From contig NZ_LUKE01000006.1 of NCBI RefSeq assembly GCF_001592735.1, forward strand, positions 192,738-256,737: a DNA stretch of 64,000 bases, given 5' to 3'. The translations under genes and the position numbers were made by a program. Under the pieces are notes generated by a model. That model saw only the letters and a program-made list of their open reading frames with translations, was not told the DNA's origin and ran no database searches. Below, one piece after another: positions 33,093-40,600 of the stretch. Origin of the DNA: Bdellovibrio bacteriovorus. GTDB lineage: Bacteria > Bdellovibrionota > Bdellovibrionia > Bdellovibrionales > Bdellovibrionaceae. Every line of letters begins with the position of its first letter. Position 1 is the stretch's first letter.

Positions 33093-33139
33093 AGGGACTC
33101 CTTGATAAATGCTTGCGGACAACGAATAATAGAACTTGG

Positions 33140-33568
33140 ATGAATAGCCAAGACTTTTTGACTATCAATTTGGTAGGAGCCGGCGCGTTTGTGCTTTGGT
33201 ACCTCGTTTCACGAGGCGGACCGATTCAACCCACTCGTCTTAACATGAAAGCTCCCGACACAGCGCCCACGGTGCTAGAGCCAGCTATTTCACAAGCCCC
33301 AGATCACGACGCGCCTAGCTCGGCGCCCGCATTGGCAAGAAATAGCCCTATCAACCACTCGATGACTCCAAAAATGAAGTCGTTGAATGTGATGTTCATT
33401 TACAATGGGCACAGCTGGGATGCGTACGAAGTTTTAGGAGTTCCGGCTGGAGCTTCGATCCCCATCGTGACCGAAGCTTATCAGACAGCGTTACGCCGTT
33501 GCACCGGGGCAGAGTCGGCCGAGTTTCTAGAGACGGCCTATAAGGCCATCCTCAATAAATCAGCTTAA
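33140..33568 (+). CDS. membrane-anchored J-domain-like protein without HPD
   Basis: A 142-residue protein started at ATG 33140; the frame opens nine codons earlier with TTG, overlapping the divergent gene region. An N-terminal hydrophobic segment (FLTINLVGAGAFVLWYLV) is followed by a Pro/Ala-rich linker and then a short C-terminal region SWDAYEVLGVPAGASIPIVTEAYQTALRRC...FLETAYKAILNKSA that follows J-domain helices I, II and IV. The His-Pro-Asp loop needed to stimulate Hsp70 is absent, so it is a J-like protein that probably does not act as a normal co-chaperone. The ribosome site is weak. Confidence 0.68.
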   Translation: MNSQDFLTINLVGAGAFVLWYLVSRGGPIQPTRLNMKAPDTAPTVLEPAISQAPDHDAPSSAPALARNSPINHSMTPKMKSLNVMFIYNGHSWDAYEVLGVPAGASIPIVTEAYQTALRRCTGAESAEFLETAYKAILNKSA

Positions 33569-33643
33569 GACGTTAGCCAAGCTGGTAACACTTCCTTGCT
33601 GCAAGCTCTTGTGAAAATGTAAGTGAGCACCGACAAGTGGAGT

Positions 33644-35242
33644 ATGAGAACCTTTCGGTATATTTTTGTATTAGTGGCGATCTCTTCACACGTGTTAGCA
33701 TCACCTTTACAGCTCACTTATCAAGGGCGCATCATCAGTTCGAAAGGCGTACCTTTAGAATATGACGACGTGTCTTTCGAGTTTCGCATCACCAACCCTC
33801 AGGGCACGTGCGTGCTGTATCGAGAGCGGCTCAATTCGGTGGATATGACCAACTCGAAAGGCGTCTTTGATACGCCGATCGGAGCGGGTACTAAATTATA
33901 TCCGCCATCTACAAGTTCCACTCTGATGGATGCTTTTTCCAATCAAAGTTCAATGTCCTGTGAAGGTGGTGGCACTTACAGTCCCGTCGCCGATGATGGA
34001 CGACTTTTGCGCGTTCTTTTCCACGACGGCAATGGGTGGAAGGTGATCAGTCCCGATAATAAAATTCGATCTGTTCCTTATGCCGGATTTGCGTATGCAT
34101 CCCAAAAATTAGGAAACCACTGGGCGAACGAGTTTTTTTTAAAAACAGGTGTCCCGACATGCACTACGGGAGAAGTTTTGAGCACCACTGGTGCGGGGAT
34201 TCTAATTTGTACACCGGATGTTGGAGGCAGCTCGGGAGGAGCTACGCGGATCGTGGCTTCCGCGTTGCCGGGAAGTCCGGCCCTAGGTGACGTCGCCATT
34301 GATTCAGGTGATGGCAACAAATTTAAATGGTATGACGGATCAGCGTGGCAATCGGCTCAGAGTGTGGCAGGAGGAGCCGGAGATATTTTAAATGGAGGAA
34401 ACTCCACGGGCAGTTCGGTCTTTGTGGGAACAAATGATGCACAAAGTGTGTCGCTAGAAACCAATAATATACCCAGATTGACGATCACATCGGGCGGCAA
34501 TATTGCGTTGGGTGGGACCACGACCACCGATCGCATGGCCTTGATCGCCAATGATGAGGGAGCGCGTTTTCGCGTCATCAATAACAGTTCAAGTGTGGCT
34601 CGTTATCCTGGTATCAGTGTCCAAAACTTTGCGGGAACCGGTGACGGGTATCCTGGTATTAGTTTGATAAATGGGGCGGGAAGTTCGACGTCCCCTACGG
34701 CTTCTAGTGCCGGCGATAATTTGGGGCGAATCACATTTTATGGCTTGGATTCTGCGGGCACGGCGAGGTCGGCTGCGTATATTCAAAGTACTCTTGCTGA
34801 AAATGTCACAAGCACCGCTTCTGGTGGGAACCTGCAGTTTTTTACAAGTAATACCGGATCGGTAGTGCCTACAGCTCGCATGACGATTACGTCCGCGGGT
34901 AATATCGGTATCGGCACGACATCTCCGACGGCAAAATTAGAAGTGGCCGGTCATATTGCGAATTCGGCGCCCAGTGCCAGTATCACGGCGTGCGGAACCA
35001 GTCCCTCGATCTCGGGGAATGATACTCGCGGGGAAATCACTTTAGGCGGCGGCTCTCCCACGTCGTGCCGTGTGAATTTTACGACGGCGTTTAACACCGC
35101 CCCTTATTGTGTGGTCAGCCCCTCGCAAGGCGACGCGGGCGCGATTCGATATTGGGTTGTTTCCGCGACGACCTCTTTAACCTTAAATCTTTCGGCGGCC
35201 GCAACGGCAGGTCAGAAGTTTAGTTATTTTTGTATTCAATAA
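33644..35242 (+). CDS. secreted fibre-like surface protein with tail-fibre repeats
   Basis: A 532-residue exported protein started at ATG 33644; GTG 33623 would add seven residues and neither has a good ribosome site. MRTFRYIFVLVAISSHVLAS is a signal peptide. An N-terminal domain (QLTYQGRIISSKGVPLEYDDVSFEFRI...) is followed by a Gly/Ser/Thr-rich shaft with tail-fibre-type strand repeats (LTITSGGNIALGGTTT, MTITSAGNIGIGTTSPTAKLEVAG) and a Cys-containing C-terminal tip (ACGTSPSISGN... YWVVSATTSLTLNL). This matches the chimeric trimeric fibres ('MAT' type) that Bdellovibrio uses at prey contact, though membership is inferred. The gene stands alone, with convergent neighbours. Confidence 0.8.
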   Translation: MRTFRYIFVLVAISSHVLASPLQLTYQGRIISSKGVPLEYDDVSFEFRITNPQGTCVLYRERLNSVDMTNSKGVFDTPIGAGTKLYPPSTSSTLMDAFSNQSSMSCEGGGTYSPVADDGRLLRVLFHDGNGWKVISPDNKIRSVPYAGFAYASQKLGNHWANEFFLKTGVPTCTTGEVLSTTGAGILICTPDVGGSSGGATRIVASALPGSPALGDVAIDSGDGNKFKWYDGSAWQSAQSVAGGAGDILNGGNSTGSSVFVGTNDAQSVSLETNNIPRLTITSGGNIALGGTTTTDRMALIANDEGARFRVINNSSSVARYPGISVQNFAGTGDGYPGISLINGAGSSTSPTASSAGDNLGRITFYGLDSAGTARSAAYIQSTLAENVTSTASGGNLQFFTSNTGSVVPTARMTITSAGNIGIGTTSPTAKLEVAGHIANSAPSASITACGTSPSISGNDTRGEITLGGGSPTSCRVNFTTAFNTAPYCVVSPSQGDAGAIRYWVVSATTSLTLNLSAAATAGQKFSYFCIQ

Positions 35243-35245
35243 GGG

Positions 35246-36064
35246 CTATTTGTTTTCGCCTAAAGGAAAAAAAGCTGTGCTCAATTGATAAATGGTGTCG
35301 GCTGCGTTTTCTTCACAAAGACTGAAGATTTCTTGATAAAATTTTGCGAGGAGGAATTCTATCTTATTATAGTTTTCTTTTTTAATGGCCAAGGTTAGAC
35401 CCTGAATGCTTCTTTTTTCGCGTGGGACATCGCGAATGGATTCTTTAGCCAAGTCGAGCATTTGGCTGTGGAAATTTCCTAGGGCGACACTTTTTTGAGC
35501 GACGGTGGTATGGCTGAGTTCTTCTTTTTTGATGCGGATATAAATGTCATTTTCTTTTTTTATCATGCCCACCTGTTGAAGAACGGTGAGCGCTTTTTGA
35601 ATTTGCACGATGGTCAGTCGAGGTCTTAAAACGGATTTAAAATCACTGGCCAAACGAAATTCTTTATCCAGGCTGAGGGCCTCCATGATGGCCGCATAAT
35701 ACCACTCTGAAATCATCGTAAATTCATTGAGGCTCAAGCGATTGACACTTACTTGTTTGGATGGCCGTAAAGCTTCTTGTATCTGTCGGTAAGAGTCTGG
35801 AAATTTGTGTTTGCTAAACTGAATCAAACATTCCGCATAAAGGCGCTCTTGTTCAGAAAACTCGAGAGCTTTGGCAATTTTTAGAACGTGTGCTAAAGTC
35901 GGCTCTCTTTTTCGGCTTAAAATTCGCGACAACGGGCCCGGGGCGGAAAAACCTAATTTCATACTCCATGAACGCAACGAATAGCGGGGGCGTTTTTTCT
36001 GAATGTCTAGCAATCTGGCATTCAAAAAATCAACAAAATCATCGAATTCATAAATGCTTTTCAT
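35246..36064 (-). CDS. TIGR02147-family regulator
   Basis: A 272-residue protein started at ATG 36064, overlapping the preceding gene's stop as ATGA. It begins MKSIYEFDDFVDFLNARL, then an HTH-like region YSLRSWSMKLGFSAPGPLSRILSRKREPTLAHVLKIAKALEFSEQE, and continues with the TIGR02147 block (ISEWYYAAIMEAL, RLTIVQIQKALTVLQQVGMIKKEND). The last 40 residues (IKKENYNKIEFLLAKFYQEIFSLCEENA) match the family's end. TIGR02147 proteins are plentiful in Bdellovibrio and Fibrobacter and are probable transcription regulators. Coupling to two secreted paralogues suggests it controls or senses something linked to them; this is inference. Confidence 0.9.
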   Translation of the reverse strand: MKSIYEFDDFVDFLNARLLDIQKKRPRYSLRSWSMKLGFSAPGPLSRILSRKREPTLAHVLKIAKALEFSEQERLYAECLIQFSKHKFPDSYRQIQEALRPSKQVSVNRLSLNEFTMISEWYYAAIMEALSLDKEFRLASDFKSVLRPRLTIVQIQKALTVLQQVGMIKKENDIYIRIKKEELSHTTVAQKSVALGNFHSQMLDLAKESIRDVPREKRSIQGLTLAIKKENYNKIEFLLAKFYQEIFSLCEENAADTIYQLSTAFFPLGENK

Positions 36065-36780
36065 TGATGTTTTTTCTTTTCGCAAATGAGGTTGGTCGCG
36101 GGGCCATAAAGTTTGCTGGCTATTTCGACCTCGTAGGTCGTCAAGGGAGCTATACCGTCACGCTCAAGAAGCAGATTTTTCATTGTTCCGGAGTCAATTC
36201 CATCAACCAGGCTGGTCAGAAATATCCGGGCTCTACCCGCGTCAAGATGCCCGTAAACATCTTTTGAAAACTGCGTGAAATCTTGTTGCAGGCGTAGCAA
36301 AGACATCGTTTTTTCTTGGGACATCCGAATGCGTTTAATTAAGCTTGGAATATAAGCTTGGGTCGTGGACGTATGCAGAATAACCTGGCGCAGAACACAG
36401 TTTTTCGGCAAAGCTATTGGCAGTTGGTTGTCATCCAAAAGCGGAAGCTCGTCGGTGGTAGCAGGCTCTGTTATTTTTTTTAGATCCTGGCGATAATAGC
36501 ACCAGACCGGTTGAAACAGATGAGGCGTGGCCCACTGAAAACGAGCCCACACTTCATCATAAAATGTATCTTCTTCGAAAGTACCGAAAATTTTATTCTG
36601 ACTGGTCCAAGCAATGAAAGGTTGAATAGATTTTAGATTCTTTTCGCCTTCGGCGGAAAGATCCCCACCATTAAAAAAACTCGTTTTTGCCGCGTCCTTA
36701 AAACAAACAACAACTTGAGCACCATCCGCCATGGTGGGTAAGGCCGCCGTTAAAAGTAAAAAGAAGAGGCATTCCTTCAC
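36061..36780 (-). CDS. secreted protein, second of two tandem paralogues
   Basis: A 239-residue secreted protein. The start is GTG 36780, overlapping the preceding stop as GTGA, giving MKECLFFLLLTAALPTMADGA as signal peptide. The TTG five codons earlier is less likely. The mature N-terminus VVVCFKDAAKTSFFNGGDLSAEGEKNLKSI closely matches its neighbour. It shares DELPLLDDNQLP...LPKNCVLRQVI and the VYGHLDAGRARIFLTSLVDG end with the other copy. Four conserved Cys (VVCFK, VWCYY, KNCVLRQ, LICEK) may be paired. No known family. Both proteins are 239 residues long. Confidence 0.85.
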   Translation of the reverse strand: MKECLFFLLLTAALPTMADGAQVVVCFKDAAKTSFFNGGDLSAEGEKNLKSIQPFIAWTSQNKIFGTFEEDTFYDEVWARFQWATPHLFQPVWCYYRQDLKKITEPATTDELPLLDDNQLPIALPKNCVLRQVILHTSTTQAYIPSLIKRIRMSQEKTMSLLRLQQDFTQFSKDVYGHLDAGRARIFLTSLVDGIDSGTMKNLLLERDGIAPLTTYEVEIASKLYGPATNLICEKKKHQ

Positions 36781-37496
36781 ATAGCACCATCGCAAAGGGG
36801 AGCCTTATAAGGCCCGAATTGAGTATAAATCTTCCGGGCTTCTGATGTGTTTTCAGCTAAAAGGGCGGCGACCAAAAGGCGTGTTAAAACGCCATCCTCA
36901 TGACCATAGGAATTCACCGCATAAGTAAATAAAAGCTCATGAACGCGCAAAATCCCCGTTTGGGACGGACAGCTCGACTTAGAAAGACGTTTTAACAACG
37001 GCTTACTAAAATAAAAATGAGGACCCTGGCGAATGATGGCCTGCTTTAAAACGCAATTTTTCGGAAGATCAAGCAGAGAGGTTTTGTCATCAATGAAAGG
37101 CAATTCATCATTAACTCCGATATCTGTTTTTCCCATCTGCAGGCAGGCTTCGGTGGTCCCATCAAAATTGGCGTCTAACTTTGAAAAAGCACTGAGAAGT
37201 GTTTTATAAACTTCATCCGGCCCCATTTTACAAATTTGCGATTGTCGCGCCTCGGACAATTTTTCGGGATGCCATTTTTTTGCCAAGTAGAAATCTAAGA
37301 CATCCATCGATTTAAGGCGATGTAAACCTTGGGCGGAAATGTCTCCGCCATTAAAAAAAGAAGGGTCCGCATTTTGATCAAAACAAATGACGACATGTCC
37401 AGGATTGCCGACAAAAAAACCACCGGCACAAGAAACTGCAGTCACTCCCAAGCACAAAAACGTAAAAAGAATCGCTCTGGTTAAAACGCTAGTCAT
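36777..37496 (-). CDS. secreted protein, first of two tandem paralogues
   Basis: A 239-residue secreted protein; ATG 37496 follows GGAG at five bases and replaces a longer start. MTSVLTRAILFTFLCLGVTAVSC may be a signal peptide or, with VSC, a lipobox. The conserved core is VVICFDQNADPSFFNGGDISAQGLHRLKSMDVLDF, then DELPFIDDKTSLLDLPKNCVLKQAI and SYGHEDGVLTRLLVAALL. It shares about a third of positions with the next gene by eye, with the Asn-Gly-Gly-Asp and LPKNCVL blocks best kept. It starts an operon of three genes joined by 4-nt overlaps. Function unknown. Confidence 0.85.
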   Translation of the reverse strand: MTSVLTRAILFTFLCLGVTAVSCAGGFFVGNPGHVVICFDQNADPSFFNGGDISAQGLHRLKSMDVLDFYLAKKWHPEKLSEARQSQICKMGPDEVYKTLLSAFSKLDANFDGTTEACLQMGKTDIGVNDELPFIDDKTSLLDLPKNCVLKQAIIRQGPHFYFSKPLLKRLSKSSCPSQTGILRVHELLFTYAVNSYGHEDGVLTRLLVAALLAENTSEARKIYTQFGPYKAPLCDGAM

Positions 37497-37604
37497 TGTA
37501 GCTCCGTGAAGAGCCGATTTTTTATGGTTTGCAGAAGCTGAAGTCAATCACGCGGCAAAGGAAGCGTTACCATGTTGGTACTATTTTCAGAAAAGGGGTC
37601 GATC

Positions 37605-40600
37605 CTAAAGATCAACCACCTTATGCTTACTTTCAAGCGGCACAAGAGCCATATATAAAGCCGGCACGACAAACAAAGTCAGGATCGTTGAAACAATGGT
37701 TCCCCCGATAATCGCCAAGCCCATCGGCAAACGCGTTTCCGCACCAATACCATGACCAAACACTAAAGGTGTTGCTGCCGCTACCGTCGCCACAGAAGTC
37801 ATTAAAATCGGACGCAGACGAATCGGGCAAGCTTCAAGCAGGGCTTCGTTCGGTGACTTCTTCCCTTCACGATGCTGATTGGTGAATTCCACCAGCATGA
37901 TCGAGTTCTTTTTCGCGATCCCCATTAAGACAATCAATCCAATGAAGCTGAAAAGATTCAAGGACACATCAAACATCCATAACGCCACCAAGGCTCCGGT
38001 CACGCTGAATGGCAAGGCGACAAGGACCGTGATCGGATGGATGAATGAGTTAAACTGCACCGCTAAAATCATATAGGCGACCAGAACCCCGACCAGCATT
38101 GCTCCGTAAAGACTTTGAAATGATTGCGCAAAGCCAGCCGAAGCTCCTTCGAGCGCAAAAGAATATCCCGGAGGCAATATTTCTTTGGCGATCTGGCCCG
38201 CTCTTTCTAAGACGTGGGATTGGGATTGTCCCGGACCTAAATTTCCGAAAACCGAAATCGCGCGTTGACGGTTCACGCGACTGATTCCTTGAATCGTGGA
38301 TTGTTCTTCAATTTTCACTAACTGAGAAAGCGGGATGAGGTTGCCGAAATTGTTGCGTGCATTCAGATTTTCAAAATCTTTGGGCGATGAAATTTTATCT
38401 TCTTCAATTTTAAAGCGAATATCATAACGACGGCCATCGGCTGTGTAACGACCTTGGCGAAGTCCGCTGACTCCGGCGGCCAATACATCCCCCACGCTTT
38501 GCACGGAAACTCCGCGGGCTGACATGGCGGCGCGGTCGGGTTTTAAAATCAGTTCTGGCAAACCTTTGCGGAAGTCGGTGTCTAAATCCACGGCCAATTT
38601 TTCTTTTTCCAATCGATCCATCAGTTCTTGAGAAGCTTTTTGTAAAACCTCAAGATCGGGTCCTCGCAAGTTCACGGCCAAAGGATTTTGTCGTCCCGAG
38701 CTTAAATTGCGGGCGGAAATATCGCGCATGCTGATTCTTAATCCTTTGATTTTGCGCAATTCTCCGCGAAGCTCTTCCATCACCTGCATATGGGTCACGG
38801 AACGATCTGCTTTAGGAATCAGTTTTACCGGCAAAAAGATTTGATTCACATTTGCGGCGCCACCACCGCCGCCAATAGAGACGAAAAAGCCTTCAACGTT
38901 TTTATTAGCCTTCACGATTTTTTCAACTTGGATGGCGAAATCCGTGGTTGCTTCCAGAGAAGTGCCGGGAACAGCTTGCGCTGTCACGATGATAAAGTCC
39001 TGATCTTGCGGAGGAACGAATTCCTGACGAACTTTAGTAATCAAAACTAAAGAACCGGCAAAAAATAAAAGCGAAGCGATTATGATGGTGTATTTCCATC
39101 GGATCGTAAATTTTAAAGAGTTTTGATAAGAGTGCGCAAAGCGTTCAAAGAGATGGTCTAACCATGCCTCAAAGCGATTCACTTTGGGCTCGTTTCTTAA
39201 AAGAGCGGCGGCCCGCATCGGAGTGATGGTGACGGCTTCTAAAAGCGACAAAAGAACTGCCGCACTCATGGTGACACCGAATTGGAAAAAGAATTTACCG
39301 ATGATGCCGTCCATAAAGACGACCGGTAAGAACACCGCAATGACGGCGGCCGTGGCCGCGGTCGCCGCGGGTAGAACTTCTTTTGCGCCTTCAGAAGCGG
39401 CCTTCGCGGAAGGCTTTCCCATGCGATAGTGGCGCACGATATTTTCTAGCAGCATGATTGCATCATCGACCACGATGGAAATTGAAAGTGTTAAGGCTAG
39501 AAGGGTGAAAAGATTTAAAGTGAAGCCGGAAAAATAAAGAATCGTAAAGGTGCCGACAATCGAAGTCGGAATGGAAAACAAAATATTAATGGCGGCTTGA
39601 ATGCTTCCTAAGAACAAAAAGCAGACTAAAATGGTGATCAGCGCCGCGACCCACAGCTTTTCGATAGTCAAATCCACGGTGGCTTCCGTGGAGCGAGTGA
39701 AGTCGACACTCACGCGGTAGTTAAATCCTTTGGGAAATTGATCTTTAATTTCCTCCACTTTTTTAAGAACGTTCTTAGCGACCTCGACTTCGTTCGTCCC
39801 CCGTTGTTTACGGATAGAGATACCCACGGCCTGTTTGCCTTCCACACGTCCTTGACGGCGAATATCGGAAAGACCATCTTCAACCCGGGCCACGTCCTTG
39901 ATGCGAATCACAACGTCTTGAATGCGCGCTCCACCGCGGTTGATGATTTGGATATTTTCAACTTCTTTAGTGGAGGCGGCTTCGCCTAACCAACGCACGC
40001 GCAGCTCGCGCTGACCATTTACAAATTGCCCGGCAGCACTTTCTAGATGTTGTTGGTTTAAAGCTTGAACAACATCGGTGACGGTCAGGTAGTATTTTTT
40101 TAATTTTGCGGGATCAATCCATACGCGTAAGTTGCGCTCCGAAAAACCGGTGATATTGACATCTCCGACTCCGGGCAAAAACCTCAACTGATCCATAAAA
40201 TAAGTATCCACCCAGATCAGCATGTCACGAAGAGGAGCTTCGCCGTAGACCGTAAAAATGATAATAGGGTCTTCTTCGGGATTTTGTTTTCTAACGACTG
40301 CCGGATCAACCCCCGTGGGCCAGCGAATTTGACCCATCGCTGTTTGCACCTCTTGTAGAACAACGTCGACATTACGATTGATATCAAATTCTAAAGTGAC
40401 TGAGCCTTGCCCTTGCCTTGCCGAAGAGCGCATTTCTTTAATACCCTCAATTGAAAGTAAAGCTTCCTCCATAGGGTCTAAGAGCTCAGCTTCCACGATT
40501 TCGGGGGCGGCACCTTCATAACTGACAGAAACATTCACGATCGGAAAGTCGACATCGGGCAGGGCACTGATTCCCATACGATTTAAAGAGATTGCCCCGA

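What the first reader, a model, noticed from the sequence alone, without database searches (positions are those of the whole stretch)
35246..37496. Two secreted paralogues coupled to a TIGR02147 protein
Both secreted proteins are 239 residues long, share NGGD and LPKNCVL blocks, and the three genes are joined by GTGA and ATGA overlaps. The tight order implies a fixed stoichiometry or regulatory circuit, and the family is unknown. It is the best candidate here for an undescribed system of the lineage.
Basis: partly seen in the sequence, partly recalled or inferred. Interest (0 to 1): 0.7.

Follow-up and report, generated by a model that had tools for sequence, protein, structure and literature searches.

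The report
Regulator-linked secreted protein family, Bdellovibrio
This small operon of a predatory bacterium encodes two related exported proteins and the DNA-binding protein that probably controls them, and it is one divergent example of an uncurated family of exported proteins that sits beside the same kind of regulator throughout the Bdellovibrio phylum.

Summary
Observation confirmed: two exported 239-residue paralogues (27% identity, E=8e-21) and a TIGR02147/DUF4423 regulator are joined by 4-nt GTGA and ATGA overlaps at 37496-35246, minus strand. The exact pair is unique to this species among genomes searched, but the upstream paralogue belongs (E=1.4e-22, model without window sequences) to a large secreted family with no significant Pfam, NCBIfam, PHROG or PDB-sequence match and no paper that I found. 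It occurs in 159 of 290 Bdellovibrionota genomes (92 of 162 genera); 45 of 49 copies in five Bdellovibrio genomes lie within 1.5 kb of a TIGR02147 gene (expected about 1.5). Regulator and partner divergence correlate within one genome (Mantel r=0.30, p=0.007). The predicted structure (pLDDT 89) has no Foldseek PDB match; the only weak second-look hits are minimal zincins (Z up to 4.0), but the zinc motif is HExxY/F, not HExxH. The downstream paralogue has lost H and E. Most likely: a self-controlled operon for a secreted zincin-like protein plus a degenerate partner, possibly acting in predation. Enzyme activity, regulation and fixed stoichiometry are untested.

The parts
36777..37496 (-). Paralogue B: exported 239-aa member of the GNGGD/HExxY family, keeps H-E (HELLF); first gene of the operon
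   Evidence: E=1.4e-22 to a family model without window sequences; 8e-19 to the 61-sequence model; structure pLDDT 89
36061..36780 (-). Paralogue A: exported 239-aa paralogue of B, H-E lost (LQQDF)
   Evidence: 27% identity to B, E=8e-21; only weak match to the family model itself
35246..36064 (-). TIGR02147/DUF4423 regulator, XRE/HigA-like HTH plus winged helix
   Evidence: NCBIfam 155.9 bits, cut-off 50; predicted structure and PDB matches
36777..36780 (-). GTGA overlap: stop of B and start of A
   Evidence: sequence
36061..36064 (-). ATGA overlap: stop of A and start of TIGR02147
   Evidence: sequence
36927..36941 (-). HELLF codons of B at the family's HExxY position
   Evidence: alignment A4, H and E in 61 of 63 rows
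36277..36291 (-). LQQDF codons of A, the same position without H-E
   Evidence: alignment A4
37597..37617 (-). Terminator-like hairpin between the RND gene and the operon
   Evidence: consensus scan only
33623..35242 (+). Convergent MAT fibre gene (non-S74, 539 aa); neighbour, not shown to be part of the module
   Evidence: NF053851 214.6 bits, cut-off 60

Best explanation
The locus is one copy of a widespread Bdellovibrionota module: a TIGR02147/DUF4423 DNA-binding regulator in one operon with exported proteins of an uncurated family (here called GNGGD/HExxY). Shown by computation: family membership of B, kinship of A and B, the recurrent genomic linkage, and correlated divergence of regulator and partner. 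Inferred: the regulator binds its own promoter region and sets when its partner is made; the partners go to the envelope, the surface or the prey compartment; their C-terminal part is a zincin-like (minimal metallopeptidase) core whose normal zinc motif has become HExxY, so they are either atypical metal enzymes or binding proteins derived from such enzymes. In this copy B keeps the H-E pair and A has lost it, so A is most likely a degenerate partner of B (a pseudoenzyme).
For: B hits the family model built without window sequences at E=1.4e-22 and 8e-19; A matches B at 8e-21. Family in 159/290 phylum genomes; 45 of 49 members in five genomes within 1.5 kb of TIGR02147, expected about 1.5; 47 of 51 loci across genus and phylum hold both, two more just outside the flank. 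Mantel r=0.30, p=0.007. Tandem pairs behind one TIGR02147 gene recur in other genera. Regulator model: XRE/HigA-like HTH plus winged helix. B model pLDDT 89, pTM 0.88; second-look matches are minimal zincins only; 21 of 63 members match PhageMetallopep weakly, best 7e-4. H and E in 61 of 63 rows.
Against: Zincin similarity is weak (Z 4.0 at best; Foldseek finds nothing) and the second zinc ligand is absent. No expression, binding or localisation data for this pair. Linkage shows association, not regulation. A is linked to the family only through B. The survey began from TIGR02147 neighbours, so the profile may favour linked members, although it was then searched against whole genomes.
Confidence: 0.6

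Rival explanations
1. The family members are not enzymes but binding or assembly proteins of the envelope, possibly connected with the MAT adhesive fibres; the zincin-like core is only a scaffold.
For: Second zinc histidine replaced by Y/F; 8 of 24 MAT genes of this genome lie within 1.5 kb of a TIGR02147 gene, expected 1.75, P=2e-4; MAT gene convergent here with a 3-bp gap.
Against: H and E kept in 61 of 63 rows, more than a mere scaffold needs; most family loci have no MAT neighbour; the MAT enrichment was noticed after the fact and may only mark variable regions.
Confidence: 0.2
2. The window pair is a decaying species-specific duplicate of little present function; the regulator is one of many redundant copies.
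For: No close homologue elsewhere; A lost D44, H, E and S; B departs at two near-invariant sites; truncated TIGR02147 copies exist in this genome.
Against: All three frames are intact with overlaps preserved; A keeps both cysteines, D113, P121, Q128 and R182; the other tandem pair of this genome, L131, shows a similar loss while remaining open.
Confidence: 0.13
3. A toxin-antitoxin-like pair with TIGR02147 as a HigA-like antitoxin.
For: HigA-type chains are the best PDB matches of the regulator's first domain; many copies per genome and tight coupling.
Against: The partners carry signal-peptide-like N termini and show no match to a toxin family; no PADLOC match; the HigA-like part is a generic XRE HTH and a winged-helix domain follows.
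Confidence: 0.04

Closest known systems
TIGR02147 family (NCBIfam Fsuc_second; C-terminal domain Pfam DUF4423)
   Same: The third gene is a full-length member, 155.9 bits against a cut-off of 50
   Different: The family is curated by sequence only; its regular linkage to a secreted family is not described in any paper that I could find
Minigluzincins and minimal zincins (selecase, abylysin, TTHA0227)
   Same: Weak structural similarity over residues 67-191 of B, Z 2.2-4.0; conserved H-E on a helix
   Different: HExxY/F instead of HExxH; exported; an extra N-terminal part of about 66 residues; no sequence match in the PDB
Pfam PF18894 PhageMetallopep
   Same: 21 of 63 members match weakly, best E=7e-4
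   Different: The two longer members whose scores were shown lie below the curated cut-off (13.5 and 14.9 bits against 23.7)
Bdellovibrio MAT adhesive fibres (NF053851; PMC10769870)
   Same: The convergent neighbour 33623-35242 is a MAT protein; both families are exported, expanded and variable in these genomes
   Different: The two paralogues are not MAT proteins; the MAT report does not discuss operons or neighbouring genes

Membership tests
TIGR02147 / DUF4423 | Score above the curated cut-offs over the full length | tested here: met
   155.9 bits, cut-off 50, positions 1-270 of 272; DUF4423 106.5 bits, cut-off 30
TIGR02147 / DUF4423 | DNA-binding fold | tested here: met
   Predicted XRE/HigA-like HTH at 8-90 and winged helix at about 105-190; binding itself not tested
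GNGGD/HExxY secreted family (defined here) | B matches a model built without window sequences | tested here: met
   E=1.4e-22
GNGGD/HExxY secreted family (defined here) | A matches the family model directly | tested here: inconclusive
   E=0.09 and 0.076; linked through B at 8e-21
GNGGD/HExxY secreted family (defined here) | H-E signature | tested here: inconclusive
   Met in B (HELLF), not met in A (LQQDF)
GNGGD/HExxY secreted family (defined here) | Within 1.5 kb of a TIGR02147 gene | tested here: met
   Window, and 45 of 49 in five genomes
Zincin metallopeptidases (minigluzincins) | Zincin fold | tested here: inconclusive
   VIA-align Z up to 4.0, minimal zincins only; no Foldseek match
Zincin metallopeptidases (minigluzincins) | HEXXH zinc motif | tested here: not met
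   Y in 57 and F in 4 of 63 rows at the second histidine
Zincin metallopeptidases (minigluzincins) | Metal binding and peptidase activity | not testable with these tools
   needs bench work
Bdellovibrio MAT fibres (for the neighbour 33623-35242) | N-terminal MAT domain | tested here: met
   214.6 bits, cut-off 60
HigBA-type toxin-antitoxin | Small cytoplasmic toxin partner | tested here: not met
   Partners are 239 aa with signal-peptide-like N termini; no Pfam or PADLOC match

The most novel reading that the evidence does not exclude
Bdellovibrionota carry a lineage-specific, diversifying repertoire of exported zincin-derived proteins with a remodelled HExxY site, each tied to its own TIGR02147 regulator, and in some tandem copies one member becomes an H-E-less partner: a one-regulator-per-effector system of predation not yet described as such.
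Probability: 0.35. Interest if true: 0.75.

Novelty: new variant of a known kind. Interest (0 to 1): 0.55.

Why it matters
TIGR02147 proteins are among the most expanded putative regulators of Bdellovibrio (41 loci counted in this genome, 19 in the genome of HD100 size), yet the literature held here is nearly silent on them and on what they control. The linkage gives many of them a candidate target: the secreted gene beside it. It also marks out a phylum-wide exported family, with a confident predicted structure and a conserved putative site, that can be tested directly for a part in prey invasion, digestion or exit.

Tried and rejected
Direct BLAST of paralogue A in 59 relatives: only this genome, so close homology says nothing. 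Scan of genome contigs with B: no relative. Scan with the best conserved subfamily: 14 loci, all Bdellovibrionota, but with narrow patterns, so restriction to the lineage is not proven. PDB by sequence: nothing for the family or the regulator. Foldseek PDB and viral libraries for B: nothing significant; the second look gave minimal zincins only. Operator search: two 5-bp palindromes upstream of B, about what chance gives. Pfam DUF3318 matches 26 of 63 members weakly (best 0.003): not followed up. 4-nt overlaps as proof of special coupling: 23 of 51 family junctions against 43 of 196 other close same-strand pairs, about two-fold enriched but common, so not decisive. 'Every tandem pair has one dead member' was considered and rejected: the pairs in G315, G233 and G237 keep H-E in both. 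Papers: none with TIGR02147, one with DUF4423, nothing relevant for the string GNGGD.

Full report
What is there. On the minus strand, 37496 to 35246, three genes follow each other: paralogue B (coding 37496-36780), paralogue A (36780-36064) and a TIGR02147 gene (36064-35249, stop to 35246). The junctions are GTGA (36780-36777) and ATGA (36064-36061). A and B are each 239 residues and align at 27% identity, E=8e-21. The third protein is a clear TIGR02147/DUF4423 member. Upstream on the same strand lies an RND transporter gene ending at 37605, with a terminator-like hairpin at 37617-37597. Downstream and convergent, with a 3-bp gap, lies a MAT fibre gene, 33623-35242.

Close relatives. BLAST of A against 59 relatives found only this genome. 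A two-sequence profile over 140 genomes of the order gave one convincing hit, in G087 (E=1.2e-10), and several weak ones. Some of the weak ones lay beside TIGR02147 genes, which was the lead that opened the case.

The wider family. I fetched the TIGR02147 loci of the window's own genome and listed their neighbours. Many neighbours are exported proteins with VGNGGDxVxC and LLDxYE near the N terminus and LHExxY near the end of a domain of about 185 residues. A profile built from 17 of these, none from the window, hits B at E=1.4e-22; A is hit only weakly (E=0.09) and belongs by way of B. In a 63-sequence alignment the near-invariant columns are G6, G9, C14, D44, D113, P121, C124, Q128, H162, E163, Y166, S178 and R182, in B mature numbering. 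B departs at Y166 (F) and S178 (G). A lacks G6, G9, D44, H162, E163 and S178 and has F at 166, but keeps C14, D113, P121, C124, Q128 and R182. No significant Pfam, NCBIfam, PHROG, PADLOC or PDB-sequence match exists for the members tested.

Distribution. The profile finds members in 21 of 24 genus genomes, 21 members in the window's own genome, and in 159 of 290 genomes drawn from the phylum, 92 of 162 genera. Named hits of one subfamily are Bdellovibrio, other Bdellovibrionia, Halobacteriovorax and Bacteriovoracaceae.

Linkage to TIGR02147. In five genomes 45 of 49 family members lie within 1.5 kb of a TIGR02147 gene, against about 1.5 expected in all (17/21, 9/9, 8/8, 7/7, 4/4, coordinates copied by hand). 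The four exceptions are long lipoprotein-like forms of about 735-805 aa. Among 51 loci from the genus and the phylum 47 hold a TIGR02147 gene in the 1.5-kb flank, and two of the others are tandem pairs with the regulator just outside it. The usual order is regulator first; the window has the reverse order, G009 also has the partner first, and some loci are divergent. Three loci in other genera have the regulator followed by two tandem family members, both with H-E. Within the window's genome the distances between regulators and between their partners correlate (Mantel r=0.30, p=0.007, 14 pairs), as expected if partners stay together and diverge together.

Structure. B was modelled with 63 sequences: pLDDT 89.0, pTM 0.88. 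Foldseek against the PDB gives nothing significant. VIA-align, as a second look over 125 chains, lists four entries at Z 2 or more, all minimal zincins or zincin-like: selecase (Z 4.0, 87 residues, 3.5 A; a second entry 3.1), abylysin (3.3) and TTHA0227 (2.2) (that TTHA0227 is zincin-like is my own knowledge). The matched part of the best hit is residues 67-191, which contains the H-E helix (155-173). Independently 21 of 63 members match Pfam PhageMetallopep weakly, best E=7e-4. I take this as a moderately supported zincin-like core. It is not filed as a metallopeptidase, because the second zinc histidine is replaced by tyrosine or phenylalanine in 61 of 63 rows and by leucine in two. The regulator model (pLDDT 87.5, pTM 0.64) is an XRE/HigA-like HTH followed by a winged helix, which fits a DNA-binding regulator.

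Most likely working. A TIGR02147 protein controls its own small operon and so the dose and timing of an exported partner. Export is inferred from the N termini. A role in predation is inferred from the lineage and from one data point: a DUF4423 protein, Bd3700, is raised at prey exit in the HD100 proteome (PMC12546842). In the genome of HD100 size (G006; identity inferred from its length of 3,782,950 bp, own knowledge) scaling of gene numbers places Bd3700 near the TIGR02147 gene at 3582197 (L211), which has no member of the secreted family beside it, so this speaks for the regulators in general and not for this pair. In this copy B keeps H-E and A has lost it; a second tandem pair of the same genome (L131) likewise has one member with HE and one with RQ. 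Since H-E is near invariant elsewhere, A is best read as a degenerate partner, or as a decaying duplicate.

The claim of an undescribed system of the lineage is right in substance, but it applies to the family and not to this pair. Fixed stoichiometry is untested. Interest 0.55: a real, phylum-wide, uncurated module of regulator and secreted protein, with this locus a divergent example and its mechanism still inferred.

Noticed in passing
L113:2698-4756, L141:3500-5574, L148, L149, L167, L170, L175, L176, L178, L183, L184, L185: A conserved three-gene operon across several families: TIGR02147, then a lipoprotein of about 222 aa (LLASCAS...), then a short family member of about 206-216 aa, mostly with 4-nt or 1-nt overlaps. 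It looks like the best conserved form of the module.
   Followed up: partly
L104:3024-3980, L108:4792-6036, L117:4714-5679, L126:4756-5427: A sibling set of secreted proteins behind TIGR02147 genes, with GGD near the N terminus and LHEiLxGLG in place of LHExxY; in L117 and L126 a short second gene without H-E follows.
   Followed up: partly
G000 whole genome; window 33623-35242: 8 of 24 MAT fibre genes lie within 1.5 kb of a TIGR02147 gene, expected 1.75, P=2e-4; may reflect shared variable regions.
   Followed up: partly
L125:4574-4888, L143:5593-5922, L210:6390-6665: Small KH-domain-like (UPF0109-like) genes directly beside TIGR02147 genes in three genomes. A UPF0109 protein, Bd2626, is raised at prey exit in HD100; by gene-number scaling it may be the L210 copy.
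   Followed up: no
G000:C1:1994338-1994796 (L137), G006:C1:634878-635336, G007:C1:1392638-1393096, G009:C3:180653-181111, G015:C1:162043-162501: A recurrent short TIGR02147 variant (176-199 aa) that matches profile positions 1-82 and 207-270 only, lacking the middle part, in five genomes.
   Followed up: no
L199:3295-8080, L200:2974-5214, L201:2609-4813: Long lipoprotein-like members of the secreted family (734-806 aa, with DKKLPDDDGYTGSGGTGDGGG near the N terminus) without a TIGR02147 neighbour, twice as one tandem pair per locus (L199, L206).
   Followed up: no
window 33113-33568: 151-aa ORF with a C-terminal stretch that reads like a J-domain (DAYEVLGVPAGASIPIVTEAYQTAL); no Pfam match.
   Followed up: no
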